From Dolomedes plantarius (taxonomy: Eukaryota > Arthropoda > Arachnida > Araneae > Dolomedidae): a stretch of 64,000 nt of DNA. Below, in pieces: positions 5,319-39,800 of the stretch (within the stretch, counting starts at the first letter, position 1; every line of letters begins with the position of its first letter). Where the stretch lies: assembly GCA_907164885.2 (NCBI GenBank), contig OU015496.1, positions 105,896,315 through 105,960,314 of the forward strand. The letters are read 5' to 3'. Position numbers and translations under genes: made by a program. The notes beneath the pieces were generated by a model. The model saw only the letters and a list, made by a program, of their open reading frames with translations. It made no database searches and was not told the DNA's origin.

Positions 5319-5398
5319 CTAATAGGCACCACCTCTAGGTCCCCGTCCACCACCAGTAGAGGAAAAGCACAGTTTTAATATGTATGGGAATTTGCCAT
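5319..5398 (-). CDS. HNRNPL: hnRNP L exon 14 (C-terminal)
   Basis: Encodes the last RRM4 strand and tail: GKFPYILKLCFSS, then GGGRGPRGGAY and a TAG stop at 5319-5321. The acceptor is CTTTCCAG. It joins exon 13 to give NPNGKFPY, matching the family's NPNGPYPYTLKLCF. Confidence 0.93.
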
Positions 5399-5939
5399 CT
5401 GGAAAGAAAGAAATTTTTTCAAATACAAAACTTACATACTACCTATATAAAAAAGAGAAGGAAATAAAGTCTGTCAAACAAATTTGAATTTTTTTCCTTT
5501 TTAATCAGGTGATTTTTGTACCTTTGAAATTTAATAAGTAACAAGTGAAACTACACAGCATAAACTTTCAGGTAATGCTTTAATAATAATAATAATAATA
5601 AAAAAATAAATAAAATAAATAAAAAAAACATTTCTAATAAATTGGGATACAGAGAAAGGTGAAGTAAAGCTTTATTTTTCAGACTAATTAACAAGAATCA
5701 ATTACTGCAGATTTACCTATAATCTATATATACACTGCTGGCCACTGTAAATGCAACACCCTGAAGGAAACATGCAAATAACATGAAATTTACAACATGC
5801 ATTAGCGGAGGTGAGATATGCAAATGATTAGAATTTCAGCACAGATGCACATCACGCGCGCCTGTGGCGCCACTTCAAAGCGCTATTTAAGGCTTGGAGA
5901 ATTCGACGATTTCAAGTTCGGCAATTGTGTTTTTCTTGC

Positions 5940-5984
<45 letters not shown>

Positions 5985-7792: not shown

Positions 7793-7828
<36 letters not shown>

Positions 7829-10800: not shown

Positions 10801-10992
10801 GATAAAAGAGTCCCTATTTTTGTTTGTCAGTGAGAAAAGTGAAATTGGACCCGGACGGGTAAAGATGCCCCTAGGTCAAGCTAATAGGACAGTGTTGTGC
10901 TAAAGTGTTTAAGGGGAAACTATTATGATATGTCTAACAAAGAAAGAGATGAATTTTAAGACTATATACCATCCCATCTTATCAATCTTTCT

Positions 10993-11032
<40 letters not shown>

Positions 11033-11218
11033 CTTCGTGCCTTTTGAGGGTTTAAGCGGCATTTTTGGAAAAATGAAAGGAAAGCAAAGAGTGTCAACTG
11101 ATTCTTAAAAAACCGGTAGATTTATTCTTTAAAGCAAAAATTTTAACATGGAAATGATACATTTGTTTTTGCGATATTGATTCTTATAACCACTGATCAC
11201 TATAAGCGGTGATTACTG

Positions 11219-11303
<85 letters not shown>

Positions 11304-14300: not shown

Positions 14301-15422
14301 GAACAGCAATATGAAGATCCTTATAACAGAGACAATGGAGTGGTGGCATATATTATGAGTGTCTCTGTAGCTGAGCATATAGAATTATGGAATATATTAT
14401 GGGTGTCCCCACAGCAGAACCAATGTAGTGCTAAAACTTAAAATATTCAAAATAAAAACTATGAATTTTAGGACAAGTGAACTCTATATTTGAGATTCCC
14501 CTCGTTTGTGATCCAGTGTCAAAATCCCCTAATTGGCTTGATGCTCAGCAGCTATAAATTAATTTTCAGTTACAAGACCTGAAAGAAACTATTCCGGCTG
14601 TTTTTATAGACTAAACAATTTTGCTCTTAAGGTAAATGCACCTATAATGGGCCACCCTTTAGAAATGTTGAGAAATTAAGGGTCTATTGTTACCTTAGGC
14701 AGTGGAAGGGTTGAGGGTCATTGGCTACTACCAACGAGGATACCTTGGCATTGGAATTCAGTTCATTCCTTTACTTTGTGCGAAGTGTAAGGTGTATTCT
14801 GCTAGAGAGAAGTAAATTTGTGTTTGTTTTAACGTCTGCTTAGGAAATCTGTTAAGGTAAGCGAATTTTTCAAAATTTTTTATTTAAGTACTATAATCCC
14901 TGTTTATTGACTTAAACTATTCTTCATTACGATAGTACGTATAATTCAAATTGTACAGTGATTAAATGACAAAAAACTTAAGATTCCATTGTCAAAATAG
15001 CGTGGCTCATCATGGGATCACAAATTGTTACACTGTCCCTGTATTGGGCCAGCCCGTGTACTGGTACAAATTATTTTTTCGGAAATGTCAATATTTGCAA
15101 CAACATACCAGCTGTGACAATTTAAGAGGTACATCACCAGCAACATTAACCACAATTTTTAAGTAAATTTAATTTCAGATGTTTAAGTTAATAAATTTAT
15201 ATTTCAATTATATTTCAGTTTTTATATATTTAGTGTAGTTGTACTGTAGTTATAAAATGAATAAACCGGTTTAAAAATATATATCATGTTTTTAATTCCC
15301 TTTCTTTCCAATTTTATGATATTGTAGAATTAATTTTTGTTCCATAACAGATAAAATAGATGGCCCATTATGGGTACATCAGATAAAATAATGGCCCATT
15401 ATAGGTGCATCAGGTTGGTTAT

Positions 15423-15476
<54 letters not shown>

Positions 15477-18400
15477 GACAGGCGTGTGGTTTGCCTGTTC
15501 TCACATTAATTTGCAGTCATCATGTTAATACTGGTGGCGAGTGGAAAATAGTCTAAATCCAATAAACAAACATAGTTCCAACGAAATCAAGTCAATTTAT
15601 TTCACCTTCCAGCAACCACTGATCCAAGTAGCGCATATTTGAGCGCTTGCCATTTGCAAATTGTGGACCCAGTTGACACGCGTCCACTAGCAACGATTAA
15701 ATCCCGCGTTCTGACAAAAATTTGCGGGCATATCCGCGCGTCAACTCTCCCTGCACATGCGCAGAGCCCAAACCAGACATCTTTCAAGGATAAATGTAAT
15801 GTTTCCTCCTCGACTGCAAAACCCACAGGTGCGCCAAGATTACATAATGAAAAGGGGAATTTCCCTTTCCCAATTCTAGTCTTGAAATACGAACAATTAG
15901 AGGCGAATTACGCCACAAATATAATTTAATTCCCCAGCCCCCTTTAATTTTAAGGTAATCATTCTTTTCCCACTTAAATTCTGACATAAATATTTATTTT
16001 TATGAATGCAGCCAGTGTGCTCCAATTGCTACTACAGATGTCAGACAGTTATTAAAATGGCAGGTAAAAATTTGGACCAGTTTGCTTTATAGCTGTGCAA
16101 ATTCAGATTTGCTTCAATTTTTCTCTTACCCATTACTGGTGCGTTTACCTTATATTAATTAATAAAAGAACATTCTGTGACAGACTCTGACTGTGTGCTC
16201 TGAAACCAACAGAAAATTATGCATTAAAAATAAAAATCTTACCCTAACTGCAATTTACAGTCAAAGAACACAGAACCATTAAGATTTGATACAGCTCGTT
16301 CAACAGACAAAGGATCTCCCATTTGAATCATTGCACATCCTTCCTTGCTTTTCAAGAATTTAATCTGCAACAGATAAATTACTAATGTTACAGGGAAGTA
16401 ATCAAAAAGCATTAAATCCTAAGCATGATAAATATCCGAGATATTTAGTTTATACTTGAGAGAGCATAGTGCGAAAAAAAAACCTTAATTATACAGTTAA
16501 AAGAAATTTTTCCAATTTTAAAAGGTAACATTGTAAATTTAATACAAATATTGATTTTAAGGTATTGGCATTTGCTTATTTTATATTTGAAACTGTATTT
16601 TGACAAAAAATTCCCATTACTTACATTTTAGATTAATTTTTAAATATTAATTAGTTAGTAAGCTAGATTACACAGTTACAGAAATAACAACTCTTGTATA
16701 AAATTATTTACATAAATAATTCCTTATTTCCTTTTTATAAACACTTACTAGCTCTAACACTTAAATTAATTATATTGATTCAGACTTTATAGGGGTGAAG
16801 GGAGAAGAATATTTTTCACTCACCCGCACAATATTGCCATACAAGCATAAAATATTAAACAATCTGTCAGCATTCATCTTCTCATGACTCAAACCATAAG
16901 CCATCATAACAGCTCCTTGTTGGTTAGCTCCAGGAGGATTCATTGGACCCCCAGGCCCATAACCAGGCCCCCTAGGAGAAACGGGGGGAGGTCCATCTCC
17001 ACGATAGGGATCTCTTCCAAATCTGGAAAATTAAACCCTAAGTCTATATAACAGATATAAAGCAGAACTAAAATATAGTCTTGAAAAATGATCAGACATT
17101 TATGCTTTTCATAATGATATTTCAATTAAATCATAATTCACACATAAAAGTGTTTTGTGTGCCTATTATGTCTAATTTTCTACCTAATAAAATTATGTAC
17201 ATTTCATAAAAATAACGAAGTACAAACTGAAAATAAATAGTGTAACATATTAAGGTGAAAGAAAATAGTCACAATGATCAGACATTTATAGTCTGATCAA
17301 ATTAAAATAAAAAAAGTCTTATTTTTTAGAATTTTACCATTAATTAGTAGGATTCGTAATTAAAACTATCTTAATAGCACAGACCTTGGATGTTGCTTTG
17401 TGTGTGTGTATGTGTTATTTTTGGCTTACATGTATATATATAAGAGGCTAATACTGCTCCTTAGCTTTATGACTACATGTGTCCTAAATAAGCCAATATC
17501 GAGTTCAATTTTGAAAGATGAAGTTTGAAATAGCTGGCAACTTAACTCTGTTTTTGCATTACCAATAAATTTTTCTTAATGCCATAAGAGAGCCATATAT
17601 AGTAACTTTTTTTCTAGAATAAAACTTATTTCTTTTGTTCTGTATTTAAAGATTCACCTTGTACATAATATAAACTGTATTATGAAATATTTTAAAGATT
17701 AAAAAGATACTTCAAAAGTGAAGCAAATCATACTCAAATGCCATAATTTTTTTTAATTATAATTTTGTTTCTCAGTTCTAATAATTGAAATACTTGATTA
17801 TAGACAATTAAAATATTACCAAGGTAATGACATAAGAAAAATAACCAGATAAGAGTTATTCATAGGTTTCTGTCTATGAGTGTTATGTTAATATCGCTCA
17901 TGTTTGTCAAATCAAACAATAAGATGCAAGGACAAACATTAAAAAAAGTTGGCATACATTTTTCTGTTCCCGTTTTTAGTCACGGCCGACTTTATGTGAT
18001 AACGTTCAGAGTATGGTGATCTGCCGATATGAAAATCGAAATTATTAGTGGCATGGAACACGGAAAACTGGTAAAAGACTCTGAGAAGATTTACTCAAAA
18101 AATGTGGTATATAATGAGAGATTTGTGAAACAGGAGTTGTATTAAGTTTTTATTCTCCTTCTTTTGAGCCAGTAGTCGATTCTACATTTATGGGATAAAT
18201 GATGTGCAGAATTAAACCACTGCCTCCCCCCCCCCCCCCAAAAAGGGGTCCAACATGATTTTACTCTCATTTTTCAACCCATTATTTTGACGGGCTTTTA
18301 ACTGGTTACTGGATAATTAATTAAAATACTTTTAATGAACTATGTTAGCAATTTAACAGAATTTCCTTTTAAAAAACATATTAAAAACTAAGAAATTTGT

Positions 18401-21400
18401 AATACTGTTTCTTTTTGTTAATCATGACAACTAAACAAACAAACAAACAACCCCCCCCCCCCCCCCAAAAAAAAAAAAAAAAAAAATAAAAAAAAATTAG
18501 TGTTGCATAGTGTTTTTGATCCAAAATAATACAATTATGTTTTATATTTTTTGCAGATGAATGCATTTACAGTCTCAACTAAGTTTAAAAACTTTAACAA
18601 TATTAATTTTCCTTGCTCAACTGAAAATGTTAATATGAAATTTGAAATATTATTTTAAGAAATAAAAACTAGCATAAAACAAACACCAAGTAAATGCATA
18701 CTTAAATGAAACTGAGAAGTTTCAGTTAAAAACTATTTAAGATATTATTTTCAAAAATGTCCAATCACTTCTGTGAGACAGTCTCTAATAAAAAGAAATG
18801 TAATGTACGACAGTGTTTCATAACAAAAGTATATTATTACACATTATATAATCATTAGTAAAATTTATTTAAAAGAAAATGTATAAATTACTTGATCTTT
18901 TAATAAAAGTGCTCTGCATCAGAGGGAAAAAGAAGAGATTGTTTAACAAGTATCTATGGCTTTTAAACACAGTTTTAGCCCCTTGTAATTCAATTTTGCT
19001 TCATTGTGGGCTTTAATAACTAACCTTATTATTAAGATAAAACTTTTAATATACATTAATAATGCTTTTAAAATGAGAAACTTACCGTTCAGGAGGAGCA
19101 GGTCCTCCATAGGGATCACGGCCAGGGGGCCCATAAGGATCGGGTCTCGGTCCTCTGGGCATATATCCATCATCATAACCACCATCATATGGCGGAGGTC
19201 CTCTACTATCTGTAACATAAATTTTACATAAGAAATCACACAGAATTAACATTTCTTAAATGTTAGAGGAAAATTATTTAACATATACAGGTTCCAGAAA
19301 AAATTACTAAACATTTTTTTATTACTAATAATCTGCCAGAGCAACTATGCATGTCACAGCTTTCTTACAGTAAGCTATTTGTGGGTATGTGTTTTTTAAA
19401 AACAATTTCCTTGATCTTTAAAAAGTCAAGTATACTCATCAAATGCAGCAAAAATGCACCTGACTTTTATATGATTTATTTTTTGTATAGTTTAGGCCAA
19501 TTTGGTCACCATGTAAATGCACTTGTTGCATATCCAGTACAGCCAGAACATAATATAAGGTATGCCCTATCACTAAGAGTATGAGCAATTTTAGCGGGTC
19601 TAGATACAGAAACAGCTGCTTGCCTAACACAAACATAAGATCCTGTTAAAATCCAAGAGGTCATTACTTGATTCCAATGGAATATCTAATAAATAATTTT
19701 AATTTCACCTAACATAGCAGGTACTTAGTTCCAAGGACTTAGACTCATCCGCACCAAGAATTTGTTGGCATTACAACTTCTGTCAAGGTTATAATTTCCC
19801 ATTACTTCTTGACACCTTTATAGTAGGAGCACCCTTTATAGTAGGAGCACCCAATAAGTGAAACAACACTGTTCCCCCATGAGTGAACTGTACTGGAAAT
19901 CCATGCCTTATTTGGGATTCGAACTCCAGCCCACTTTGTAGAAGCTTGAGATGCTAACCATTATAAAACATTGGCAGTTACAATAAATAACTGCAGGCCT
20001 ACATGTGCCTTGACACATGTTGCTAAAAAAGTTGGGAATACATTTGCCTATTAATTGCATCTGTAATTGACATATTTTAAACAATGCATTACAGCTTCTG
20101 TCAACAAGGCTACTTCAACATTTCCAATTATAATTTTTCCATTACTTGTATATAGATTATATTGTCATAATTCACTATAAAATTAAACAAAATTTAACTT
20201 CTTTAAAATGTTAAAATTTCCTATTTAACACAAAATTTGATATTTAATAGTTGGAGAGCAAATAATCATCTACAAAGGTTTCTTTTACAAAAGGGCCTGT
20301 TAAGTTACATTCTAACTAAGCAAAAAATTACTTTAGCAGATGAAAGGTATACATACAAGATACAGTGAAACCTCGATCGATCATTCCCCAAATTATTGTT
20401 TTCCCATATGTGTCATCTATTTCATTCAGTTCCGGTGATTATATTTATTTGATATGTTTTAGCATCTATCGTTCAGAGGAATAAGTCCCTTCAAAAACGA
20501 TAGATCAAGGTTCCACCACATTCATATAATTATCAAGATAAGGCAACAAAGTAAAATAATGCTTCAGACTGTGAGTTCTTATTTTGATCTGTCTCTTAAA
20601 AATAAAAATTGAGATTTTTTCCGCTGCAGGATTCCTGCTCTGTCACTACTTATTTGAAATAGGCTATTTATATTAAGATTACTCAAATATATCATTTCAA
20701 GATTTAAATTTTTCCAGTAAAGATTAGAGACTTATTACCAGGAGGTCCATAGCCACGAGGAGGTTCTTGCAGAAGTGCTGGGCGTTCACTACCAGATGAT
20801 TTACCTAAAATAAAGTACATTTATTCGACTATAGTATTTACATGATTGCTCAAATAAAAAATCAATTATCTTAATTTGATAGTTTAAACTTTTGATAAAA
20901 AGTTTTATACTTTAACAATATACTTACCATAATTACCAATTCATTGAAATAAAAATACATTTTCAGTTTGAAAAGATAATAAACCTAAAAAGTTTACAAT
21001 GATTACTATTGAAAAAAGTTTACACCCATTTATTCTTTTGTTAAATTTCTTTTATAAAACATATCAAAATGATTAGATACAAATAATCATGTGTCAGGTA
21101 AAATCAATAGTTTACAGAAAAAAAAAAAAATTATCATGTATTCATTTCAATGCATTTACAAAGAAATTCTAAAGAATTTTCAAACTAATACAGACACCCT
21201 GACACTTTATTAGCTTTTCAAACTATTAATTTTCAAAAGTACAGCAATGTCTCTTAAAAATAAATAAATAAAATAATGCATTTATTACAAGGTTTGAAGC
21301 AGCCAGACCCAATTTTAAAATAATTCAGACAAGGAGCAAACCTTCCTGTCTTTGCAATAATCCCAGCAACTTATAGAGAAAACGAGCTTGCAGCACAGTG

Positions 21401-24400
21401 GAGATAGTATCTGTCAGAGAAGCTCGCTTCAAAGTCGAGTTGACAAGCACACAGCTCCAAATGTTCTCCTGTATACAAGATTCACAGCATTAGGGTTACA
21501 AAAGTAATTACATATCACTTGTTTGGTTGTGTTTTTGTCTTGTCCATGTTATCTTCTCTTGGTCCATGTCATGCTTGTGCTCTTGAGTGACTGGTAATGG
21601 TGAATCATATTTTGCATGTTTTGTTCCATGTGGTTTTGCAATTGTTTTCACTCTTTACAATCATAAGTTGATCCAAAAGTTCAGAGGCAGCAAGATCTGT
21701 TTATGTTTCTCAACATAGCAAAACTTATGTTTTCATTTTATTATATGTAGTTATTATTGCCAGTGTTATAAACAGTAGTTTTTCAATTAAGTAGCAATGA
21801 ATTTTTTTAATGTAATTTTTCTCACTTTACTCAATACTAAGAGTTATCCACTTTGCTCAAGTTATTCACGATGTATCACGCAACCAAATTTAAGACATAT
21901 CACTAAAGAACTATTTGATTCTACGCAGCAGAGTAACTTGAGATTGAAAATTACAGACTATGTGAGGATTCTAAGGCAACATTTTGTGTTTTAAACACTC
22001 AATCATTGAAATATATATTTGTTAGATGAAAGTAAATTTATTTAACAGAAGGGACATTTTATTTTGGGGAGTACATGAAAATGATTTTAGCTGATTTAAT
22101 CAGATTTTTTCTCTAACTATATGATTATGAAGCATCAACAACCACACATTAATAAGTATTATGTTATTAACAAAATTTTGTTCTTTAAATCTGTATCTTT
22201 TAGGCTCATTGTACAGCACTTTATCTAGCCAGTTATGAAAACATTAAGTTCAAGGTCAGTAATGATTTTGGAGCATATTATTATGTAAGAAAAGGATAAA
22301 ATTAAATATTGAGACGAAAATGTAAAATTAATAAATTCTCTTAATAGTAATGTGAACTTTTTAAAGCCTTAAATGTTCGTATTCTTTAGAAAACATTTAA
22401 AAGTTATGAATGTGCAATTTAATATTTCTATGTTACAATAAATTTCTTTCAAACCATTTGTGTAGTATAGCCATTATTAATAATATTCATAATCCATAAG
22501 CATCAATGTCCATTTTCAATGTACTGCTTTGCATTTCCCCAGCTTTATATACATGTAGGCCATCTTCACGAATCTTAACAGTGTACCTCATAATTAAATG
22601 AAGTTTCTTGACCACAAATGAACAAAGAACTTCTTTTTCATATGAGTTTGTCACATATCATTGTTTTATTACAATGGATCTTTCCAGTGTTGGTTCATCT
22701 GTCATGTATGTCACTTTCATTGTATATATGATAGTATTTCAACAATGTTGTAGAGCTTAGTGAATGACGTTTGGAAAAAATAAAAATGTTAATGATGATG
22801 TTGAGTTAGAATGATAATATGAAGTAAATTTGTTATGTAAACAGTATTATCCATAATAAAACAAATAAAATTCAAGATAGCATTATCAATGATAATTTAT
22901 GAAAAGGTCACAGATGAGAATTTAAGAATCTCATAAAAAAGAATGAGATCTGACTAGATTATAATCAGCTTTATAGATTATAGTCAGAGAGTTACAAGAA
23001 TTAATTTTAGAAACTAAAATAAAATTTAAGTTTGAGAAAAAAACAATTTAACATACTTAAACAGATTTTATATACTTTTAAAACTAAAAATTTCAAACTA
23101 TTAAATATATTAGAAATGCATTTTTAGCAGTTAAAAAAGATGTAGGATAGGAAAGATCTCTATATAAAATAAACTAAATGAATTGAAAAATATATATTTA
23201 CTTTTGCTTTTGTTTTATTTATGATAAATTTTTTTCAAGAAAATTTGTATAATTAAGATTTTGAAGTTAAAAGAAAAATATATAACATACCTAATGAATT
23301 ATTAGTATAATCCCAGCTTTCATTATCATTTTTATAGACATTCAGCCTTGTAGGCTATAAGAGGAGAGAAAAATAAGCTATATTGAAAAAGTTTTAAATT
23401 CTAACATTCTTTTCTCAAAACAATACATACATTAGAACACTAACAATAAAAAAATTTCATCATAAAACGAACAGTGAAGTGCATACCAATATGTCAAATG
23501 CCCTTTTAAACTTATGTCTTTTCCTCAGAAATTCCAACATCCCCAAGAGACTAAAGCCTTGTTCACATTGCACCTGGAGTGCTGCGTTGCAATTCTAAGG
23601 TTGTTGATATGACTTGTGACTAGTCTGACATATCACATGGTCAATGATTTGAGCTCTGTGATTGGTAAAATTTTTTTTCACACAAAATATGCAACACTCC
23701 AGAAGCAATGTGAACAAAGCCTTAGAGATGTGTTTCAGAATTGTCTGATTTTTAACAAATAGTTTATTATAAACTAGCTGAAAACTCGTCAATGTATGAA
23801 ATTAATGCCAAAAAAAAAAAAATATATATATATTTATAATAAATGCGATGATCAATGTATACAATTGATGTAAAATATATATATATTTATAAAAAAATCG
23901 TAAAGGATATTTATTTATTTTTTTGGATAATATCCAATTGTCTGCTGCATTAGAAAGAAAAAGAATATTTTTTTTGTCTATTTAGTTGTTATGCACGTGA
24001 CAGTAAATTTATTTAAAGTACCAGAAAAAGAAATCACGTGATCAGCATTAAATAAATTAAATTCTAAAAATTAATCTTTAAAAAATTCATCAAAAATCAG
24101 AAAATTGAGGTAAACGTTCAAAAAAGATTTCATTTTAAAGGAATTTTTATGATCTTTCTCGTGACATAAATTGTATAACCCTCAAATTATTATTTTAAAT
24201 GCAAACTTAAAAAAAGTTACAAAAACAGCTTAAAAATTTAATTAAAAAAAAATCTAAGAAGAATTTTTCAAAAATCTTTCACAGTGCACCCCTACACCAT
24301 AAGAAGAATCGCCATGCAAAATTTCAGCCCTTTAGGTCCAGTGGTTTGGTCTGAGCATTGCATGTCTGTCAGTCAGTCAGTCAGTGACGGAACTGTTTTA

Positions 24401-24710
24401 TACATATAGATTATATTTTAATTGTTTTAAAAATGAATAATATTTATAGTGTTCAATATAAATTATACACAAGCATGTCAACAAAAACTACACATAACAT
24501 CAAAATATCTCACTGTAAAACTTCTCTGTACAGTATTTTGCATCTCAGTGCAAACTTGACTTTTGAATAAATTTAATATTTCTTTTCAATTTCAGAAAAA
24601 TTTCCATGAGTTGTTCTTAAAAATTAAATGTTTAATGTACATCAAAACTTTAAGTAAACCCTTAATCTTTCTGTACTGCTATTCATAATCTGATGATCAA
24701 TATATTACTT

Positions 24711-24744
<34 letters not shown>

Positions 24745-24838
24745 CAGGTAGTCTCTTCTAACAAAATTACCGCAGATTGTTAACGTAGGATTACTTATCG
24801 TTGATAACCTCTTTTGTATGTATATATGTATGTATGTG

Positions 24839-24895
<57 letters not shown>

Positions 24896-27800
24896 CAAAA
24901 TTTTGACAATAATGATAACAACAGATTAATTTTTTGCTAAATTTGTTATTATTGTGATTCGCTAATAGTGTACAGTTTTGTCAAAAATATGTATTTTGGA
25001 TCACCCTAGCATCATAATCTGAAATTAATGCTGTTGGCATTAGTGGGAGTAGATTTTTTTAACTATGACTATCCTCAATAGAGAAGCCCACGCCTCAAAA
25101 CGACCACTTTTTATCAGTACTATGACTGGCTATCATAGAGAAGTTTCACTGTATACTACAAAACCTTTTTTCCTTACAAAAAGCTATTCTGCCTATTTTC
25201 TAATGTAATGCATTAGCAAAATCCAAAATAATTTAAGTGCCATACAGAATTTTTGTCAACTTTAGTGTGAATAATACTTTACCTGTAGAAAGCTAAGTTT
25301 CAAAGCTACAAAAAAGAAAATACATGATAATTAGGATTTCTAAGTGCAAGGAACTATAGAAAATATCCCCTGTAAATGTCATAAATGACATTATTTAACG
25401 TTAATACTTTTATATACTGTAGCTTATCTAGCAACAAAATTATAGATACAGATATGAATATGCATATATACATTCATTTTCCTTTTTTAGGTGCAAATAT
25501 GTTAGGAACTTTTTAAAAAAAGCTGCAGTACACTTCTAGGTCTAAAATTTTTTTGAAATTGAGTATTTTGACACATGAAGAAGCTTATGTGAGGCTTTGC
25601 CTATTCATTTTATGCCCATTTGGCATTAGACGGGTTTTATAGCAATATATTTCTTTCAAATAGTTTAGTACACCTAGACAGAAACCATCTAGATTCATTG
25701 AAAAATTTATCTACCATAGATTCATCATACATTTCTACAATTGAGGTAAGTTGCATTAAAATTTCTGAGATATGCAACTATATAGATTAATTTCCTTTTT
25801 ATTAATAATCTTTTTTATCACTTTAAAATCACTACCATAATCTGGGAGATTTAGAAGTGTATTAGGACTGCCTTTTCTCCCTTTAGTAAAGAAATCAGAA
25901 GGGTATGGCTTATAACATTAAATCAAAACTTAATTGCCAGATACATATACTGTCAATAAAATGTAGATATAAAAACATATTACAGACATGTACTAAGTGA
26001 AAGTCGTTTGCCTCCCAAAACTATGTAACATTTACGTATTTCAACAAAATTTTAATTTAAAAGACAGTATTGGCATAACAGAACTGCCAATCTCATAACA
26101 AAAATATTACTTCATACAATACCCCTTAACATGTATTGACAGAACAGTTTTATTTAATCCACACATAATTAAAAAAACGACTATGGAATACCATTCTTAA
26201 AGAATAACATAAAACAAATATGATAATTAAATATGAAAATTTAACATTTTATTTTTATACAGACCTTTGCAAATTCAATTTTTAATGTACAGCAACCAGA
26301 ATAAATATCACATCCATTTAATGATTGTTTCGCTCGTTCAGCAGCCTCCAAGCTATCAAACTTAAGAGTTAGTTAAGGAAGGAAAAAAAAGTACAAATGA
26401 AGAAAATGTAATCATTTAACTTGTAAATTAAGAAGTCAGACATTTTTGGAAGTTTCATTTTTCCATTTCATGTAGCAAAAATGTAATGTATATATAGTCT
26501 AAGAATTCTAGAAACAATTTTCATATTAATATTTAACTACTAAAATTTGTTTTACAGAGTAAAACAAGTTCATTTTCCTTCTGGATTTAAGCAGGGAAAT
26601 AAAAGTACAAATGAAGAAAATTCAATCAATTAACTTGTAAATTAAGAAGTCACTCAAATTTCAAAGTTTTGGATATTGGCCCTTTTTGTTCCAAAGTACA
26701 GATATAATCTAAGAATTCTAGAAACAATTTACATATTAATATCTAACTACTAAAATTTGTTTTACAGAGTAACATATGTTCATTTTCCTTCTAGATAAAA
26801 ACAAAATTTCATACTCATTTGACAAGTTATATAGGTGGGAGTCGGATCAATTTCTATTAAATAGCCTTGTCTCCCATTATTCAGTCAAGAACTAAGTTTT
26901 CGAAAATAAAAGACTAAACATAACAGCAGTCAGAGATATCTAAATATGAATTTGTTTCATAAAATTTCATAAGTAAAATGGGGAGAGATTTTAGTTTTTT
27001 GGCATTAACCCCTTGAGGACCAGCACACGGAGAAAGAAGCACAGTCACGGGACCAAACACTCCGAAATGGAGCGTCGCCACCGGCCCACGCGTTTTCAGA
27101 AGTTAAGCCTAATTTTACAAAAAAATTCATATAAAATCATCATTTTAATATTATGACTCCAATATTAGATGTTACGTATATAATATACTACTTCTTAATA
27201 TGTATTAATATAAAGAATATAACTTTAATAGAAATAATATAAAAGTGCAAAATACAAAATTTATAAACATACACAGGGAAACAAATACTATACACATGAA
27301 ACCAAAGTTATAAATACGAAATTAAAAAAAAGAAAATTAAGCAATAATTATCTGTAGATAAGTAAATTCTAAATTAAAAATTCTGTTGTGTGTGGTATAG
27401 TTCAAAACAAGGATCGACACACAGTCCTACGTTGCATATTTTGCACTCATATGATGTTTGTTTTCGCTTTTCCTTGTTTTTAGCGAACACAACGCATCGC
27501 CTTCTACCTTTGTTATCTTTTCCCTCAATGTAAATTTTCGGAAAATGTCTTCCAGATAAACGGAAAGGTTGAGTGCCCGGTGATTTTGGATAAATCTTTA
27601 AGTTTCTTGTTTTTGTGTACTTATCCATTATTTGATGAACAATTCTGGTTCTAAATTCCAAAGAGGATATTTTGTCTCCTTTTACCTTTGAATATATTAT
27701 ATTTGCATTTAGAAGTGTCATATAAAATAAAATAAAATAAAATAATAAAATTAAAAAAGCTTTTTGTACCATTTTACTGTTTTTCTAAATGCTCGATAAT

Positions 27801-30800
27801 GATGCATTATAGAATCCCCAGTGTCAACACCTCCCATATTGTGATTATACTCTACAACGCAGAGTGGCTTCAAAATGTCCATCCCAGTCTTTCGGTCTTT
27901 TTTACCCATTGGCACAATAACATTGTCATGTATGGTTGATAACATCAACACGTTTTTCTTTTTGTCCTTAAATGTAAATAAATTCACTGAATTTTTTTGC
28001 AAAACTACAGTTTCATCCTTCTTGATATCAGGAATGACTTTTGGCATTCCTTTTCTGTTCCTCATGACAGTCCCACACGTTTGTTTTATTTTCAAGAAGA
28101 AAAGAAGCAAGGTTCAGTGATACAAAAAATCGATCCAAGTATAAATCATAACCTTTACCTGACAGAGTTGATAGTAACGTTTTTACTACACGCTCACCGT
28201 ATAGACCTCCAGTTTCCAAAATCTCCATATCCTTTACAGTATATATATAGAAGTTCCATATACATCCCGTCAGCGATTCGCATAATTTATATATTTTAAT
28301 TCCGTACCTTTTTGAGGGTATGTACTGGCAAAAACCTAAAATTCCTTTCCATCCAAAGAAAGTTTCATCAATACATATATTTCTTTCAGGTGTACCGACT
28401 TGAAATTTTCTATAAGTATGGTTAGTACTGATATAATTTTCTCCAATTTTTTAGCTTCAGGATTGGAACTGAAATGCAAGAATCGCAAAATTTCTAAAAA
28501 TCTGTTCCTTGGCATAGCCATACTAAAAAAGGGTGTTGATAACATGAAGTTTGAGGAAAAATACATTTTTAAATTCGGTTTCTTAATGATGCTCATCAGA
28601 ATTACTAATGCCAGAAAAATCATCATTTCATCCTTTGTTAAGTTCTGGAAGGGTTTCACAGGGCAGGTAGTTGAGGGTCCAGGTTCATTTTGCTTCTTTT
28701 GGAACATTTTCTGTGCAAAATCATTTGTCTCATTCACAATGATATCTATAATTTTATCAAAAAACAGATTAAAAATGTCCAGTTCACACTCTGTTTGCAC
28801 ATTGTTTAAATTTGGTCCAGGTATCACTATAAAGTCCATCTTCCGTAGCAATTTTATTTCAGAAGACCAACTAGCTGCAGGGTCAGTGCAAGCATCTAAT
28901 GGAGACTCCTCTTCAAAATTATATTCCTCTGTGTCTGAGGAAAAGGAATCACCTGATTCACTGTTAATACTTAAATCACTATCACTATCTTCACTAATCT
29001 CAGAATCACTTTCATTCATATTTGTACATATTTCACTCTCAGTGAGGTATCTCGGTCTCTTAGCCATAGCTAACGGAATGAAACTGATAACAGGCAAATG
29101 TTTAGCGACAAAGTGCCTCCGCGTTCGAGGAAAAAATATATACATATATATCCCCAAACATCTACAAAACATACCCAGAAACATTTCACTCTCATACCCT
29201 GCAATAGTCAGCTGTACACACTTCACCATATTCTCCTAAGGAAAAAAACAAAGCAATAAACAAAAATGCCGGTGTCCCTTTAACTCATATCTGCACTTTT
29301 AAAGAGCCACGATTCCCCAATTTGTTTACACCAATAAATCTATCAAATCCAGAGGCATACAACAGAAACTGATGCCCGTACATGAAGGTCAAATGGCATG
29401 ACTCGACCGTTGTGAAAACCGTTGCCTTTTAGCGCCATCTACTAGCATTTTAAAAATTCAAACAGATCGTTCCGTTTTCAAATTACGCATACGCGACACT
29501 GGGCTCCCCGTGATGTTGAGAGTTCTTCGCGCATGCGAGACGCTAGGCTGATAACAGTGGAATCGTTGCATCGTGCATACGGGATGCAGGTTGTGAACGG
29601 GTTAACAAAACTGGTGCTCAATTAAGTAAAAATTCACTACATAGAAATAAAGAGCTTTTTATGATCCATTACACTGCAAAAAATTCCCAATTAATTTTAG
29701 ACTGATTGATATTATTGACCTTTACCAGGTAAGAAAAGCATTTTTTGCAATAGTCTAAATCTTTGTGTCTGCTTGATATTAATAAATGCATTAAACAAAG
29801 TCAATTATAACTAGTAAAATGTATATAATTCAACAGATAAAGATATTATATAACAAGAAGAATGCAATGACAGTCAAACAAAATAAAAAGAAATCCTATA
29901 CTTAGAGCTAAACACATCATAAATGCAAGATTCTGTAGCAGTAAAAAGAAACATACAATCCTAAAAAGAACACAAATATAAAGACAGAAATACAAAAGGC
30001 ACACTCACCCTACCCCAATAAATTGTACCACTGCAGCATAACTACAGCGCCATACCCAATTGGAATTTAAAGCAATAAGCATTGAAAGAAATTGTGAAAC
30101 CAGAAAACCCTATCTTAATTATCCTTAAAATACACCCGAGTCTATATACCATTTTTTAAAAATACTTTTATATTACAAAAGTTACTGTGGAAATTGTTCT
30201 TATGTAGGTTTTCCTCGAAACTATTACATGCCTACAAAATTTTTCACTGTTATTGAAAATGCTTTTTATTCTATTTAGTTGCGAGTGAAAGATTTTATAA
30301 TAAATTTTAGTTTAAATTGCTATGGAAATCAGTAAATGTAATAACCTCAAAGCTGATATCTAATCTTTTATCATATATACTTAAAACTACCTTCGGTTGT
30401 ACACATTAAATCTAAATTTCTACCAATTAAAGATTGTTGGGTAATCGTTGTCACTTAAAAAATACCAAACAACGTTAAGGGATAATGTTTTAGAATTTCT
30501 AACGAATTTGTAATGATTTAGAATTTCTAAATCAAATCTACCGAAAGGTATTAACTTTAAACAAAACTAAGGAAGATAATCATTATGCAGCTTATCTGGA
30601 TATTAAAATTAAAGATAGCGAAATAAGAATCAGGATATATGATAAAAGATTAGATTTCAACTTTGAGATTACATTTACTGATTTCCATCGCAATTTAAAC
30701 TATAAAATTTATTATATCTTTCACTCACAACTAAATAGAATAAAAAGCATTTTCAGTAACAGTGATGATTTTTTTGAGGCATGTATCAGTTTCAAAGGAA

Positions 30801-33800
30801 ATCTACGTAAGTACAATTTCCGCAATAACTCTTTTAATCTACAAGTATTAAAAACACAGTATTTAGACTGTGGAGTATTTTAAGGACAATTACAATACAG
30901 TTTACAGGTTTCAAAATTTCTTTCAATACTTGTTGCTTTCAATTGGGTGTGGAACTGTAGTTATGCTGCAGTGGTACAATTCTTAAGGTTAAAATTGCTG
31001 ATTTTTAGTTATAACCATCACTTCACAATTTATTGGGATAGGGTAAGTGTGCCTTTTGTATTTCTGTCTTTATATTTCTGTATTTTTTAGGATTGTTTCT
31101 TTTTATCGTTGCAGAATTTTGCATTAAGCTCTAAGTGCAGGATTTCAGTTTATTTTCAATTGGTTTGACTATCTGTTTCCATGGGGAACTCGGGATGTCT
31201 TTTGGCTAGACCTGCATCCTATTCAGAAAGTTCCCCCTTGAGGTAACTGATTTGGTTAGGCCTCCTGATGAAGAGACCAGTCAGTTGCCTTGTTATATGG
31301 TTTAGTTTTTATACTGCTACAGAATCTTGCATTTATGGTTTGTTTAGCTCTAAGTGCAGGATTTCTGTTAATTTTGTTTGACTGTCATTGCATTCATCCT
31401 GTTATATATCTTTCTCTGTTGAATTATTTATACTTTACTAGTTATAATTGCCTGTTTTTTCAGTATGAGGATTTGTAGCAACTGCATAATCTTTTATTGA
31501 AAAGTTTAAAATTATTCAAAGCTAGTGCAGTTTTTCTATTAATTTCATTCGGCTGTCTATGCCTTCTTTATGCATTTTTATTTCTTATTTTGTGTTGAAT
31601 TATTTACAATGTATAAGTTAAACAAAGTCAATCAATTATACTTTGTCAAATTTCTCCAAACAGAAAATATAAAAACATTGTAAAATGTCACACACTGAAT
31701 TGTGCATTAATATATACAAAGTCTCTATATTGACTATAGAAAAGAAATACCTATTCTTTTATATAGTCATAAAATTCTTGGTTGATGCAGTAGAATCTTT
31801 AATATTTACTTATCTGATTTCTATAAAGATTTATGCTTTTTGATAAGCTTGTAACAAAAGAAACTGAAAGTTAATAACCCTCTAAAATGCTTTTGCTACT
31901 TTTTAAATAAATATACAGATTACTTTATTTGCTTTTACTTAGTGGAAAATATTGAGAAAATATTTTAAAGGATATTCAACCATGGCTTGTACTCCATTCT
32001 TCTTAAATATAACAATGCGAAGGACTTTTCCACTTGGACTGCAAATTGTATGAATAACATCCTATAGAGAAATGAATTCTGAATTATTTAGCTAAAATAT
32101 TTTAAGTAAGCCTAATACATTACTTGGGTTAAATAACTTCTCTTACCGTAGTGATAGGATAGGCTGGATTCATAACAGTTATCAGTAAAATATGATTAGG
32201 CTTCTCTTCAAAGCTGTCCAAAAGCAAAATAAGAATTTAGAATAGACCTCTCTGTCTAACACTCCCGCACACACGTATACACACACACATATATATCTAC
32301 ATAACATACTAGATCATATGAACAAACATTGAACTATACATATATATATATACTTGGTATAAAAATGAAATTTTTTTTTATAAATTTACTTTCTAAGAAC
32401 ATATAACATTAATATATATATATACATATATACAGTGGAATCTCGATCGATCGTTTTTCCGTATGTGTCGTTCATTTTATCCAGTCCCAACGATCATATT
32501 GCTTTGTTATGTTTCCGCATCTATCGTTCATTTCAATTGGTCCCTTGAAAAACGATAGATCGAGATTCTACTGTATATATATATATATATGTAATATATA
32601 TATACACACATAAATTATATATTAAAAAAAAAAAACCCTCTAATAAGCTGGGAACAAGCTTGGATAGGAGAATTTAGTATTTTCAAAGAAAGAAAGAAAA
32701 AAAAAGCATGTTAGTTTCAGAAATAACTTGCTCTCATACACACTACTCTCAGGTAGCGTTTTCCAACCAGGGTTCCCCGAAACATTGTTAAGGGTTCCTC
32801 AAGAAATAGGGAAATAACACTACATCATAAAAGGGAAAACAATATTTTCCTGATTCAGTACTGTACTCAGTTAACTTCGGTGGGGGAAGCAGATGTGACT
32901 GTGTGCATTAGTGATGCGAGAAGTGTAGGATCATGTGGTTGGTTAAACATAGTGCTAGAGAGTATTTTTTATTTTACTACCTTATTAGTATTTTATTCGG
33001 TTTTGTTTCTTATTTTTTAATTCTTCTACAGATTTGAACAGTTAAAATGTGGTGATACTTGAAGACAAACAATCCATATAATTCTGAAGAGACTAAGTGA
33101 TAAAGATTTAGAACCTCATACAAAATTTCAAAAGACTGATAAAGAAAGAGGTGCAAAAAAGGTTCGTCATTATATGAAAATTATTCATCAATAAGCTTTA
33201 CATGGACTGGTAATCCAGAATGTCCTCTTCCATTATGTCTCGTTTGTGGTGAAAAACTTTTGAATACAGCAATGGCTCCAACAAAATTGAACAGACATTT
33301 CATGATAAATCATACTAATATGAAAAATAAAACTGTTGATTATTTTAAAACTCTGTTAAAATCTGAAAATAAACAGAATATAGCTTAGGTAAACACATTT
33401 ACAGTTAGTGAAAAGGCTCAGGAAGCAAGTTATTTGGTAGTAGAGCTTATTGCACAGAAAAGGATAAGTCACATAGTTAGTGGGAATCTGATAATGCCCA
33501 CATGTAAAATTATAGTGGGTAAAACCTTGGAAGAAGATGCAGTTAGAAAAATTGAAAATAATCCACTTTCGAACAATACAGTAAGTTGACGAATCAGTGA
33601 TATATCACATGATGTTGATGGAGGTTTTGTGTGATGAACTGAAAAGTGGCAATTTTCAATTCAAGTGGACGAGTCGACAGATTTAACCAACAAATGTTAT
33701 GTTCTAGCATTTGTAAGATTTGTTAATGAGAAATTCAAGAAAACTTCCTCTGCTATAAAGAATTGAGACAAGCAGAGGAATAGATATATTCAATATTTTA

Positions 33801-36800
33801 TCTGGATATTTGGAATAAAACTTTCTTGGAAGAATTGTATTGGCATTTGTACCGATGGTGCTGCTTCCATGGTTAGTTCCACAAAAGAATTTATTAATCT
33901 TGTAAAAGAAAAAAATGCTTATGTTGTTTCCACTCAACATTTTATTCATAGAGAAGAGTTGATGTCAAAATCTCTCGGCAATGAACTACAAGAGGTATTT
34001 GATGAAGTTATAAAAATAGTAAACTTCATTAAACAGAAGCCACTTCACCAGAATTTTTAAAAAGCTCTGTGGAAACATGGATAAAGAGCACACAAATCTA
34101 TTGTTATACACTGATATCTGGTGGGGAAGTAGAGACAAGAGTTTTTAATAGGGTTTTTCAGCTAAAGGATGAAATGCATGCACATTTTCAACAAGATGAC
34201 AAACAAAATTTTATTAAATGCTCTGAGGATCAAATGTGGGTATAGATGCTAGCTTTATTTAGCAGATATTTTTTATCACTAAATCAACTGAATAAGTTTC
34301 TGCAAGGCGGTGGAGAAAATATATTAACTTAAAGTGACAAGATTGTTGGATTTAAAAGAAAATTAAACTTATGGAAAAATCATGTTGTAAAAGGGAATCT
34401 TGATAAGTTTGAATTACTGGCGGGACGTGAAGATGGATACCAACAAATTTCAAGTTTTATTGTATCCCACCTAGAGGAGCTATCAAAGAAAACTGATTAT
34501 TGTTTTCCCTCACTGTCAACAGAACTATACAATTGGGTGAGGAATCCATTCTCTCGCACTTCCATTCATCCTCAGAACCTAACTTTAAAAGATGAAGAAT
34601 TTTGTGACTTACAATCGGATGGTTCATCGAAAATGAGATTTAACAACATGGTTTTGGTCAAATTCTAGATTTTCATTGAAAGTGAATATCCCACAATTCA
34701 TAGGAAAACAATTAATATACTGCTGTAGTTTTCAACATTGTACATGTGTGAACAAGCTTTTTCTTGTTTAACAAGTATTAAGAGTAAGGATAGAAATCGT
34801 CTCCTTTCTGTGGAAGATGAAATCTGCATATGTATATCGAAAATCAGACCCTGAATTCAACATTTATGTTACAAAACACAGGCACAGATTTCACATTAAT
34901 ACTTATTATAAATTGTTATACTAAAGAAATTTATTATCTATACCTAATTATATTTAGAATTATACCAATTGCCTGTAATTGCATTTTTTGTTTGTTTTGA
35001 AATAAATGACTAAAATGATAGTAATTTTTTAGCAATTTCCATTGAATTGTAGTCTTCTAGTATCATACTATACTGAATCCCATGGTTATTTTTGAAGTTA
35101 TTAATATATCCTATTCTAATGTTTGATACTTTGAGTAAATGAATAAAATTGGCAATGGAGTCAGTATTGATTTGAACTTATAAATAATTTAACAAGTTCC
35201 TGAAATATACTCTAATTTAATATTGAAAAAAAAAAAAAAAATTCTAACAAGGGTGCCCCGAGTATCTAATCTCACTCCCAGGGGTGCCACAAACATAAAA
35301 AGGTTGGGAAGCACTACTCTAAGGTATCTAAAAAGAGTATTTTTAATTCAAAATGATTATTTAAAATAAACTTCACAACTTTATGTATAGGTTGGTTTAC
35401 AGTACCAGAACAAATAAACTGTGTAATATTTCAATATACAACCTAAAGGGAAAAAAATTAAATATGAAACAAATTATATCCATAACCAGATTATGGTTCA
35501 TATTTGATATCAAAATATATATTATTCAGATAATATTAAAAATACTTCTAAAAAGTGTTAATTTAATAAAACTGTCAATGCTAGGTTCAAAAAGATTGTA
35601 TGCCTTATTGAAAAAAAAAAACATTAATGCAATATATTACATATCTTCTTTAAATATCATATTAACATTCCTCGTTGTTTTATGAAAGAAAGTTAGGGTT
35701 TTGTTGATTGTTAAATAAAATATATTAGTCGCCCCATTGCTCGACATTGAGCAAATTTCATTTAATTTTTGCAATAACAAATGCCGTTCTAACTTATGCG
35801 GCTCAATGCTTATTGAACTTCAGCATTTCAGTCTGCATTTAATGATCAACTTTAACTGATTGTACGGGCACTCAAACTGAACAGCCAAGCAAGCTTCTTA
35901 GTAATGAGATATTTTTAAACTTTGAACACAGATGCCTCCTCCATAGATGCAGTTTCTTCTGGCCGAACATCAGGAAAAAGATTTTGTTTAGTTTCAATGA
36001 AGCAACTTGGCTGCAAACCGTGATGTTGGCAAAACTGGTACAAATAAATGTTTTTCCATGCAAAAATAATAATGTACACCTACACAGATGTTGCCAATAA
36101 AGAAACTCATTGATGATTTCACAGAATAACAAAAGCAAACAATTTTAAAATTTAAAAGTTCAGTGTGATTGATAATGGTAAAATAAAAAAAGGTTAGCAC
36201 ACATGCCATCTAGGGGAAGAAATTCTTTTTATGTTTATATTTCAATTTTTAAATAAACAATAAGATGTGTAATTCTAGATTAACAATTTACATGAAGTGG
36301 AGATCTTAATCTTTAAATAGTACCTCATTTATCAATTTTGGATCAGTATGAAGAGAAAAAAAGGGATAAAACAAAAAACACCTTTTAGAAATAATATATA
36401 TAGATAGTGAAGAAAATGAAATGTATATCCTAGAGTACTAAATGTGTAAGGTGCCAAATAACCCGAAGAGTCCATGATTGTCTTTTATAATTTTATTTAA
36501 TACCACACATAACAAAACATATAACGATTAAATTAGACTGAAATTAATGAAACCTGGCACGCACTGCCAAGATGTGCTCCCTACATATCAAAACCTAGCA
36601 AGATGAGCGGAAAAAAAAAAAAAAAAAAAAAAAAAGAACAACAAAGTTTTGCAGCGTTCCCCCACATTTCACTCGATTCACAACAGATAGAGCACTGAGC
36701 AGTAGGAAAAATGATAAAACTTAATTTCAAATGAATCTACAAGTGCTAATATTTAAATCCCTAATTAGATAACAGATCATATTATTATTTATTAATAATT

Positions 36801-39800
36801 AAGAAATATAAACACTTATTAGTCCATGTTTATATATTTTTGATAACAGGGAAGGAAGCATACACAAAAGGAAATTAGGGTACTTTGTTCAGAAAGTTAT
36901 ACAATGGATCATTTCAAATCATGTTTTTTTTATATGGTAAAAGTAAATTTTCAGGAGAATTAGGTTACATGCTTGATTATTGAGTAGTTATGACATTTTA
37001 CTTTAAATAATAAATGTGTGAATTCTCTTAGTTTTATCAATGACAAAAAAGTTTTAAAAATAACTCTTTCATTAAAATGTTCTATCTTTATAAACCAATC
37101 AAAACACTTAAAAGAAGTTTTAAGTTAGATGATCCAAGAGGGGGGGGGGGGGGGGACGACAAAATACGTTTGTAAACCAATTTATACTTCAACAAACAGC
37201 ACAAACTGAAAATTTGTAAACCACCACAGAAAAAGGTAAAATTTCCCCCTAACCTAATTTAGGTAAGAGTTATGTTTACTAATTAAAAAAAAAATCAGTC
37301 AAAATTATGATTTGAAAACAAAGAAAGGGTTCTGGTAAACAGTGGAAACAGATCTTTAACCTATAAGAAGACAGAATATATTGAAAACTAAATACCCAGC
37401 TCTGCCTCCTCCTCCTCCACTATTTCGGTTACTATAATTATAGTAATTTCCTCCATTACCATTGAAATTTTCCTGAAAGAAAAACATTTAGGAAAATGAA
37501 TGTAGCTGAATAATCAAAAAAGCATAACTTAAATGAATAGTTAAAAAAATGACTCAGTTTTCATTTCAGTCTCATACATATATGTATATTTTGCTCAGAA
37601 ACTAAAACTTTTGAGAAATTTCACAACATTGGATTTTTGATTTCAAATACTTAAATACAAATAAAATAAACACAGATATTAGTGGCTGACTAAAAAATAA
37701 GACAATCTGCATCAATAGTTAAAGCCAAAGATACGCTATATTGATTTTTTTCTAGCACAGAGAGAGAGAGAGAGAGTCTGCACGACACTGATAAAAATGT
37801 ATTAATTTTAGAAACCCCACTGAATTTCTGCAACTTAGTATGTTTACTTCTGAAACTCTGTACTTCATAAAGTTGCTTGAAAAATTATTAAATTATATTT
37901 CATACTAAACTAATCGAAAACATAGTTTGTGATCCAGTTTAATTACTTTATAACTACTTTGAAAGGAAGTTCCCCAAATCTGTTTAGATAATCATCTTGG
38001 ATATCATGTTTCCCATCAAAGTAATGAATCGGCTTCTGCATGTAAGAAACTGAAAGATTCCTTTTGAAATACTGTATCACTACATTTACCACAAAATTTA
38101 ACTTTTAAATCTGTTTAAGCTATAGCTTATCTATCTAGAATAACATAATAGTTTTACCTTCACACATTAGGTGTTAGAACATGTAAATGTTATTTTACAT
38201 GTTTCTTTGATGGAAAACATGATATCCAAGATGATTATCTAAACAGATTTGGGGAAGTTCCTTTCAAAGTAGTTATGAAGTAATTAAACTGGATCACAAA
38301 GTATAACTGAGTAACTTGACTCCTTAAAGTGCTTGGCACCTCTGATTTTGATTTATTTTCAGAAATAGAAAATGGATGAATTTTTTTAAACAAAATTTTA
38401 TATTTAGAGATAAAATGGACTGAAAAGTGAAAAATGCTTTATTAAAGAAAATTATTTAAGTTATAATCTATCCTGAATTTCTGAAAATTATTTTTACAAA
38501 ATACCTCGGAATCTGAGTAAGTGACCCCTATTAAATTCCTCTCAGGAACTCAAATTTAAATAGTGAGCATGATCCCAGAACTTGTTTACTACACACTCCT
38601 ATTCTCTTCCTCTATATTTCTGTTTTCTTACATTCTTAACATAGTAATTCTGATTGCAAAATCTAATTACTGTCTGTGAACTGATAATTACTACCATAGG
38701 TTGGCTATAATTAAGCATACTTAAATACCTCATTAACCCTTTGAGGGGTGCCATTTGCACAGTGCAAACGCCTAAATCTAATCTTTTTCTCACTTGCTTT
38801 CAATGTATTCCAGTTAAATGAGCAGAAAAATATTTAGTACTGCCATCAGTTATCAGTTTAAAGAAGTAAAAACATTTTACAACCTTTAATTGGAAAAAAA
38901 TTTCAAGATTTTTTGGGTTGAAAAAATTGGGAAAAATATCTGCACTGTGAAAACGTTGCAGGTTGTTGCCCCTGAAAGGGTTAAAGAATACAAACATAAC
39001 TTAAACTTGATTCGCTTAAGAAATCAGACAATGTCCGAACCATGTGATAAACACCTATTGCTCAGAATGTACTACTAATAGGATAAGGTTATTTTAAATT
39101 AACAAATAATACTGCATCAACAGAGTGTAATGTTTTGCATTTAATATTTGTTCAAAAGGATAGAGGTTGCATAGAAATATTTGCAATTTTCAAGTTTTAC
39201 AGAGGTCTTTAAACCCCTGATCCACATGGAGGTGAGGCTGAGTATCAGTATTCATTAATGTATAATTATATTATTATTAATGGGTATATAAAACAGAAAA
39301 TATTAATACAGTTGGCTCTCTGTTTAACGACTTTCAAGGGACTGTGAAAAATCGTCCTTAAGTAGAGATCACCCTTAAACAGAATTTGTGAAAAAATAAC
39401 ATTTCTCATAACGTCGGAGGGGCCAGGACAGGGAAATATCGTCTTAAAATAGAGATCGTCGTTAAACAGAGAACCAACTGTATCATCAATGCAGTGGGCA
39501 GACTATTATTTCAGTGATTTTCACTGTACTTTCACAAATAGCATTACAATATTTTAAGTAGATGTTTATAATAATAAAAACATGATTTAATTTTTTTCTT
39601 TTCGCATTTTGATTTTCTAAAATCAAGTTCTTTATCAGTGGGTAGATCCTACTCAGATAATACAGTAATCTTAAATTTAAATCATGACATTGGTTCATCC
39701 TGAATTGTCATTTTACAAGTAACCATTATTACATCTAGAAATAATTTACTTGATTTTATTTTAAAAATTGACAAGCCCAGTAAAAGCTCCAAGTGGAATG

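What the first reader, a model, noticed from the sequence alone, without database searches (positions are those of the whole stretch)
26361..31981. Candidate U2/U12 twintron in the RRM2 of hnRNP L
Intron 4 begins, on the coding strand, with ATATCCTTT, the exact minor-spliceosome 5' splice consensus. Near its end is TTCCTTAAC, the exact minor branch-point consensus, 11-12 bases before the acceptor. A major-type GT lies five bases upstream of the minor donor, and an AG ends the same intron one base after a possible AA end. U2 splicing gives AMFDS (two residues missing from beta3). U12 splicing gives AMVEFDS (AA end, equal to the family sequence) or AMVDLKFDS (AC end). All are in frame. So one intron could yield RRM2 variants with a short or normal RNA-contacting strand, chosen by which spliceosome acts. 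Such overlap is known from Drosophila prospero; whether it is described in this gene family I do not know.
Basis: partly seen in the sequence, partly recalled or inferred. Interest (0 to 1): 0.82.

Follow-up and report, generated by a model that had tools for sequence, protein, structure and literature searches.

The report
AT-AA minor intron in hnRNP L

Summary
The letters are as described. Intron 4 of an intact hnRNP L-like gene (minus strand) starts ATATCCTTT at 31975; TTCCTTAAC (26380-26372) lies 11-12 nt before an AA end. Chance of both, about 1.5e-8. The genome, a spider's by its closest relatives, holds at least 9 U12 snRNA loci and a CENATAC-like exon.

Best reading: one U12-type AT-AA intron (31975-26362), joined GTTGA|G to give AMVEFDS, the family sequence. 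AT-AA is the commonest non-canonical minor ending in animals (PMC10639083).

The twintron part is not supported. The GT is part of the Val codon; as a U2 donor it ranks at the 45th percentile of GTs, seven real donors at the 95th or above. AC lies 5-6 nt from the branch adenosines. Of 194 listed relatives, 189 have M[VLI]E[FY][DE]; AMFDS occurs in one cluster, a Caerostris annotation, probably an artefact. A vertebrate HNRPLL twintron is published (PMC3564746). No RNA reads were available, so rare U2 use is not excluded.

The parts
31976..32061 (-). Exon 4 of hnRNP L-like gene (RRM2), ending ...ATG GTT GA
   Evidence: DVIHTICSPSGKVLRIVIFKKNGVQAMV(E)
31967..31975 (-). U12-type 5' splice site ATATCCTTT (intron begins at 31975)
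26362..31975 (-). U12-type AT-AA intron, 5614 nt
   Evidence: product AMVEFDS equals the family sequence
26372..26380 (-). U12-type branch-point sequence TTCCTTAAC; branch adenosines 26374/26373, 12/11 nt from the AA end
   Evidence: only copy on the minus strand of the window
26362..26363 (-). AA end of the intron (U12 3' splice site)
26265..26361 (-). Exon 5, beginning G|TTT GAT AGC (G completes the Glu codon GAG)
31979..31980 (-). Proposed U2 donor GT (ATG|GTTGAA); first two bases of the Val codon; judged non-functional or cryptic
   Evidence: score -5.15, 45.5th percentile of 3279 GTs
26361..26362 (-). Proposed U2 acceptor AG (last A of the AA end plus first G of exon 5); the stretch before it is pyrimidine-rich (0.82)
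26368..26369 (-). Alternative AC end; only 5-6 nt from the branch As, judged unused
5322..40294 (-). The hnRNP L-like gene, 14 tblastn matches from MAQFDGHAAKRQRTDNEGGR (40294) to the C-terminal match (5322)
   Evidence: with the Stegodyphus protein P0001

Best explanation
Intron 4 of this spider hnRNP L-like gene is a single U12-type (minor) intron with AT-AA ends. U11-48K/U11 snRNP reads ATATCCTTT, U12 snRNP pairs with TTCCTTAAC and leaves one of its two As as the branch point, and the AA 11-12 nt downstream serves as the 3' splice site, giving GTTGA|GTTTGAT = AMVEFDS. A CENATAC-type factor, which favours AT-AN minor introns in human cells, probably assists. The nearby GT-AG pair is a consequence of the codons and is at most a weak cryptic site when minor splicing fails. 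Shown: motifs, spacing, frame, intact gene, U12 snRNA loci, one CENATAC-like exon, near-universal protein form in listed relatives. Inferred: the actual splicing and the factor roles in this species.
For: Exact donor and branch motifs at the boundary, joint chance about 1.5e-8; spacing 11-12 nt, within or at the 11-13 nt optimum (PMC3584512, passages); AA gives the family sequence, AT-AG a frameshift and stop; 189 of 194 listed relatives have M[VLI]E[FY][DE]; four close unnamed relatives (P0002, P0005, P0006, P0008; 80-84% identical to the query), encoded whole on contigs of at most 1611-1795 bases and so probably spliced transcripts, have MVEFDS; U12 snRNA at 9 loci above cut-off, a lower bound; one CCDC84/CENATAC exon, profile positions 277-320 of 330, 44.1 bits, cut-off 25.3; AT-AA the most common non-canonical minor ending in animals (PMC10639083, section 30 read); CENATAC depletion affected 92% of A-type minor introns, a class that includes AT-AA (PMC8280824, section 10 read); a pseudoscorpion gene model reads through the site as AMVEYPLMG, which fits GAATATCCTTTAATG (inference from protein letters).
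Against: No RNA reads from this species. The stretch before the AG is pyrimidine-rich (0.82), a trait U12 introns usually lack. One spider annotation (Caerostris, P0007) carries AMFDS. No other genome's DNA at this junction could be read. U6atac was asked for but did not complete; U11 and U4atac were not searched.
Confidence: 0.88

Rival explanations
1. A working twintron: the major spliceosome uses GT(31980)-AG(26361) for AMFDS and the minor one AT-AA for AMVEFDS, as a regulated switch in RRM2.
For: Both pairs exist and keep the frame; pyrimidine fraction 0.82 before the AG; Caerostris extrusa model P0007, in a cluster of two members, has exactly AMFDS; a vertebrate HNRPLL twintron with slight RRM change is published; AlphaFold of P0007 still gives strands and helices of an RRM2, though such models are insensitive to small deletions.
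Against: Donor ATGGTTGAA at the 45.5th percentile of GTs, seven real donors of this gene at 95.2-99.8; 10 of 17 other GTs nearby score higher; the GT follows from Val GTT and the AG from A|G; AMFDS in 1 of 194 listed relatives and in none of the four short-contig ones; Pfam RRM scores fall in the AMFDS form (RRM_8 50.1 to 40.4 bits).
Confidence: 0.06
2. Minor splicing with the U2 pair as an occasional cryptic site, used only when the minor spliceosome is limiting (compatible with the best explanation).
For: In HeLa cells CENATAC depletion raised retention or activated major splice sites, or both, for 92% of A-type introns (PMC8280824); pyrimidine stretch before the AG.
Against: Better-scoring GTs lie nearby, so a cryptic event might rather use those; no read data.
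Confidence: 0.25
3. U12 splicing with the AC end (AT-AC), giving AMVDLKFDS.
For: AT-AC is the common A-type pair; in frame.
Against: Branch As only 5-6 nt from the end, optimum 11-13; no such insertion among 194 listed relatives; lower Pfam RRM scores than the AA product (RRM_8 43.9 against 50.1 bits).
Confidence: 0.03
4. Chance motifs in an ordinary U2 intron.
For: A GT and an AG are present.
Against: Joint chance 1.5e-8 and a donor of random strength.
Confidence: 0.02

Closest known systems
AT-AA subtype of U12-type introns (PMC10639083; A-type introns of PMC8280824)
   Same: ATATCCTT donor, branch-point consensus close to the end, AA terminus; AT-AA is the commonest non-canonical ending in animals
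   Different: No difference found; one more case, in a 5.6-kb intron of a spider gene
HNRPLL twintron of vertebrates (Janice et al. 2013, PMC3564746)
   Same: Same gene family; a U12-type intron with a U2 alternative that slightly changes an RRM (537 and 536 aa)
   Different: Position not verified as the same; one residue in total there, two here; the review PMC8329584 calls it an outer U12 and inner U2 intron, whereas here the GT-AG pair lies outside; the paper's tables of sites and expression were not seen
PRMT1 twintron of mammals (same paper)
   Same: U12-type AT intron with unusual AA end
   Different: Its U12 product is an NMD target; here the AA product matches the family protein
prospero twintron of Drosophila
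   Same: Idea of two spliceosomes sharing one intron place
   Different: There the U2 intron lies inside the U12 intron, gives a 29-residue longer protein and has a known enhancer; here the GT-AG pair lies outside by 5 and 1 nt and no enhancer was looked for

Membership tests
U12-type (minor) intron | 5' splice site consensus (here ATATCCTTT) at the exon border | tested here: met
U12-type (minor) intron | Branch-point consensus TTCCTTAAC 11-13 nt before the 3' end | tested here: met
   26380-26372, 11-12 nt from the AA end; optimum from PMC3584512
U12-type (minor) intron | Usual trait, not a defining feature in the review: no distinct polypyrimidine tract | tested here: not met
   0.82 pyrimidine in the 22 nt examined, which overlap the branch motif; the review names donor and branch point as the defining features
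U12-type (minor) intron | Host has a minor spliceosome | tested here: met
   U12 snRNA at 9 loci; one CENATAC-like exon; U6atac request not answered, U11 and U4atac not searched
U12-type (minor) intron | Spliced by the minor spliceosome | not testable with these tools
   no RNA data or knock-down
U2/U12 twintron | A usable U2 donor and acceptor at the same place | tested here: not met
   donor at the 45.5th percentile of GTs by a recalled human matrix; acceptor stretch acceptable
U2/U12 twintron | Both spliced forms seen as transcripts | not testable with these tools
   AMFDS only in 1 of 194 listed relatives, a genome annotation
hnRNP L / LL | RRM2 closest to hnRNP L among solved structures | tested here: met
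   7evr (4.4e-36) and 2mqm (5.2e-36) best of 8 matches

The most novel reading that the evidence does not exclude
Spiders keep a near-coincident twintron in which the two spliceosomes' sites differ by only 5 and 1 nt, so that an AA-versus-AG choice trims two residues from the third strand of hnRNP L RRM2; the AMFDS model of Caerostris would then be a real isoform, and the arrangement would parallel vertebrate HNRPLL by convergence or deep conservation.
Probability: 0.06. Interest if true: 0.6.

Novelty: new member of a known kind. Interest (0 to 1): 0.27.

Why it matters
It adds an animal AT-AA minor intron whose AA end is fixed by protein conservation, in a splicing regulator. It also points to a practical hazard: the same junction seems to have misled gene models in three arachnid genomes (Caerostris lacks two residues, Trichonephila lacks most of exon 4, Cordylochernes reads through), so the apparent twintron isoform is more likely an annotation product. 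If a real switch were shown, RRM2 of a splicing factor would be tuned by minor-spliceosome capacity.

Tried and rejected
Considered and rejected: AT-AC end (too near the branch As); AT-AG end (frameshift with a stop); a working U2 pair. AlphaFold models of P0007 (AMFDS; alignment A1, 36 of the 194 proteins) and P0001 (AMVEFDS; A2, 35 of the 194) both gave an RRM2, and a Foldseek search of the P0007 model matched hnRNP L: not decisive, because such models react little to a two-residue deletion. Val and Glu are invariant in A2, but I picked its rows among regular sequences, without P0007, P0010, P0027, P0037 and P0188, so I do not use that as evidence; 11 of the 120 proteins have Leu or Ile in place of Val. 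The genome-wide pattern search with 20-50 nt between the motifs (12 matches, 8 in the reversed control) asks nothing about a 5.6-kb intron and was dropped. Retrocopies of the spliced hnRNP L mRNA in the own genome, which could show the true junction, could not be sought: that request did not complete. Rfam on the window: no match. Paper searches; no listing pointed to a description of this intron in spiders, but only the held open library was searched and most listed papers were not opened. Tables S1 and S2 of PMC3564746 could not be read. The U2 weight matrix is recalled human frequencies, not a tool's.
Full report
What was checked. The minus strand of 26000-32400 was read. Exon 4 (32061-31976) ends ATG GTT GA; ATATCCTTT follows at 31975. 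At the other end TTCCTTAAC (26380-26372) is followed by TAACTCTTAAG and then TTTGATAGC. Four splice combinations were translated: AT-AA gives AMVEFDS, GT-AG gives AMFDS, AT-AC gives AMVDLKFDS, AT-AG shifts the frame and stops.

The gene and the organism. tblastn with the Stegodyphus dumicola protein P0001 finds 14 matches on the minus strand from 40294 to 5322, 68-100% identical, which together cover nearly all of that protein, so the gene looks complete and intact. The ten best relatives are six named spiders (Stegodyphus, Argiope, Uloborus, Caerostris, Parasteatoda, Trichonephila) and four unnamed proteins; the window is therefore taken to be from a spider, in a genome of 2.78 Gb. RRM2 is closest to the solved hnRNP L RRM2 (7evr, 2mqm).

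Is the U12 signal more than chance? 200 first-order Markov simulations expect 0.91 ATATCCTTT and 0.475 TTCCTTAAC per strand of 64 kb; both exact within 13 donor and 11 branch positions (ranges I chose) of one given intron have a chance of about 1.5e-8, or about 2e-7 over the gene's 13 or so introns. TTCCTTAAC occurs once on this strand of the window, ATATCCTTT twice. The branch adenosines lie 12 and 11 nt from the AA end, 6 and 5 nt from the AC end, and 13 and 12 nt from the AG end. The review PMC3584512 (passages seen) gives an optimum of 11-13 nt, says that donor and branch point define the class, that either A of the consensus can be the branch point, and that AT-AG is disfavoured. The genome has U12 snRNA at 9 loci above the curated cut-off, a lower bound, 8 of them within 15 kb of contig C12, and one exon of a CCDC84/CENATAC relative (profile positions 277-320 of 330, 44.1 bits, cut-off 25.3). 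The U6atac request did not complete; U11 and U4atac were not searched.

Is AA a believable end? The pan-eukaryotic survey PMC10639083 (section 30 read) says AT-AA is the most common non-canonical minor-intron ending in animals and that non-canonical endings make up about 3.8% of orthologous animal minor introns. PMC8280824 (section 10 read) groups AT-AC, AT-AA, AT-AG and AT-AT as A-type; 92% of them responded to CENATAC loss by retention, by use of alternative major splice sites, or both. So one U12 intron with an AA end explains what is needed.

Is the U2 pair more than a by-product? In this gene exon 4 encodes Met-Val-Glu; Val codons are GTN, so a GT five bases before the AT follows from the Val. 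(In 11 of the 120 proteins the Val is Leu or Ile.) The AG is the last A of AA plus the G that completes the Glu codon. Only the frame match is not forced (one in three). With recalled human donor frequencies, ATGGTTGAA scores -5.15, at the 45.5th percentile of the 3279 GTs on this strand; seven donors of the gene score 1.38 to 6.16, at the 95.2nd to 99.8th percentile. Between the start of exon 4 and window position 31700, 10 of the other 17 GTs score better. In favour of U2 use, the 22 nt examined before the AG are 0.82 pyrimidine, against 0.50-0.86 for seven other acceptors of the gene; they overlap the branch motif.

What relatives show. Two protein searches listed 194 distinct proteins (the 120 best of 1451; the 120 best of 288, the second made with the AMFDS form over residues 34-73 so that such forms would rank first). 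Of the 194, 189 have M[VLI]E[FY][DE]; two models of one pseudoscorpion genome (Cordylochernes, P0027 and P0037) read AMVEYPLMGLL...; one (Caerostris extrusa, P0007, a cluster of two members of which I saw one) reads AMFDS; one bivalve (Tegillarca, P0188) reads AMVTFE; one (Trichonephila, P0010) lacks most of exon 4 and the start of exon 5. The pseudoscorpion read-through VEYPLM fits GAATATCCTTTAATG, that is, the U12 donor left unspliced, and its re-entry ATFDS, like Tegillarca's VTFE, fits an intron ending AC|G; these are inferences from protein letters only. They suggest AT-AC in outgroups and AT-AA in at least some spiders. Caerostris AMFDS needs AG|TTT, so its intron too may end A|G. Four close unnamed proteins (P0002, P0005, P0006, P0008; source tag lgn) sit on contigs of at most 1611-1795 bases that encode 471-474 residues, with no room for the introns, so they are probably assembled transcripts; these four read MVEFDS, as do the models of Stegodyphus, Argiope, Uloborus and Parasteatoda. 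Limits: the database is clustered at 90%, so isoforms within clusters are hidden, and only the best 120 of each search were listed.

Explanation. The most likely mechanism is ordinary minor splicing of an AT-AA intron. The twintron reading is left at about 6%. A weaker version, in which GT-AG is an occasional cryptic site when minor splicing fails, is more plausible (about 25%, and compatible with the main reading), following what is seen in HeLa cells, though better GTs lie near.

What is known. Janice et al. 2013 (PMC3564746; parts 1 and 2 of 3 read) list human HNRPLL as a twintron gene (U12 form 537 aa, U2 form 536 aa) with slight variation in the RRM judged insignificant; PMC8329584 (passages) describes it as an outer U12 and inner U2 intron, the opposite of the nesting here. 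The same 2013 paper notes a U12 intron with an AA end in PRMT1. So both the idea (twintron in this family) and the end type are in print. Whether the human intron sits at the same codon was not verifiable here. My searches listed no paper that I recognised as describing the spider intron.

Verdict. Observation confirmed; the U12 half of the interpretation supported; the competing-spliceosome half not supported. A new member of a known kind, with interest mainly as a clean AT-AA case and as a trap for gene prediction.

Noticed in passing
window 27005-29605, minus: A DNA transposon inside the intron, piggyBac-like by my recall of its domains: TTAA at both ends (read by eye), transposase domain PF13843 and zinc finger PF13842 on open frames split over several reading frames, so apparently inactive.
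   Followed up: partly
window 29793-31459: A roughly 1.7-kb imperfect palindrome of nested inverted arms (mostly 80-95% complementary) in the same intron, perhaps a foldback or MITE-like element.
   Followed up: partly
window 40916-41485, plus: An intronless 189-aa open frame with ribosomal protein L6 domain (PF00347), L9-like by eye, head to head with the hnRNP L start codon 622 bases away; retrocopy or true gene not decided.
   Followed up: partly
G000:C12:66641437-66656467: Eight U12 snRNA copies within 15 kb, seven of them spaced 1.63-1.64 kb apart (a tandem array) and one 5.1 kb off; one more on C11.
   Followed up: no
proteins P0001, P0003 and the window gene: The spider hnRNP L-like forms start with a short Gly/Asn-rich stretch directly before RRM2; a recalled human RRM1 found no match in the window.
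   Followed up: partly
window 6145-7023 plus; 46140-47160 plus; 62507-63146 plus; 44271-45320 minus: Transposase-like open frames. The first has Tc3-type HTH and DDE_3 domains; the last had no Pfam match at 0.001; the other two look mariner/Tc1-like by eye and were not tested.
   Followed up: partly
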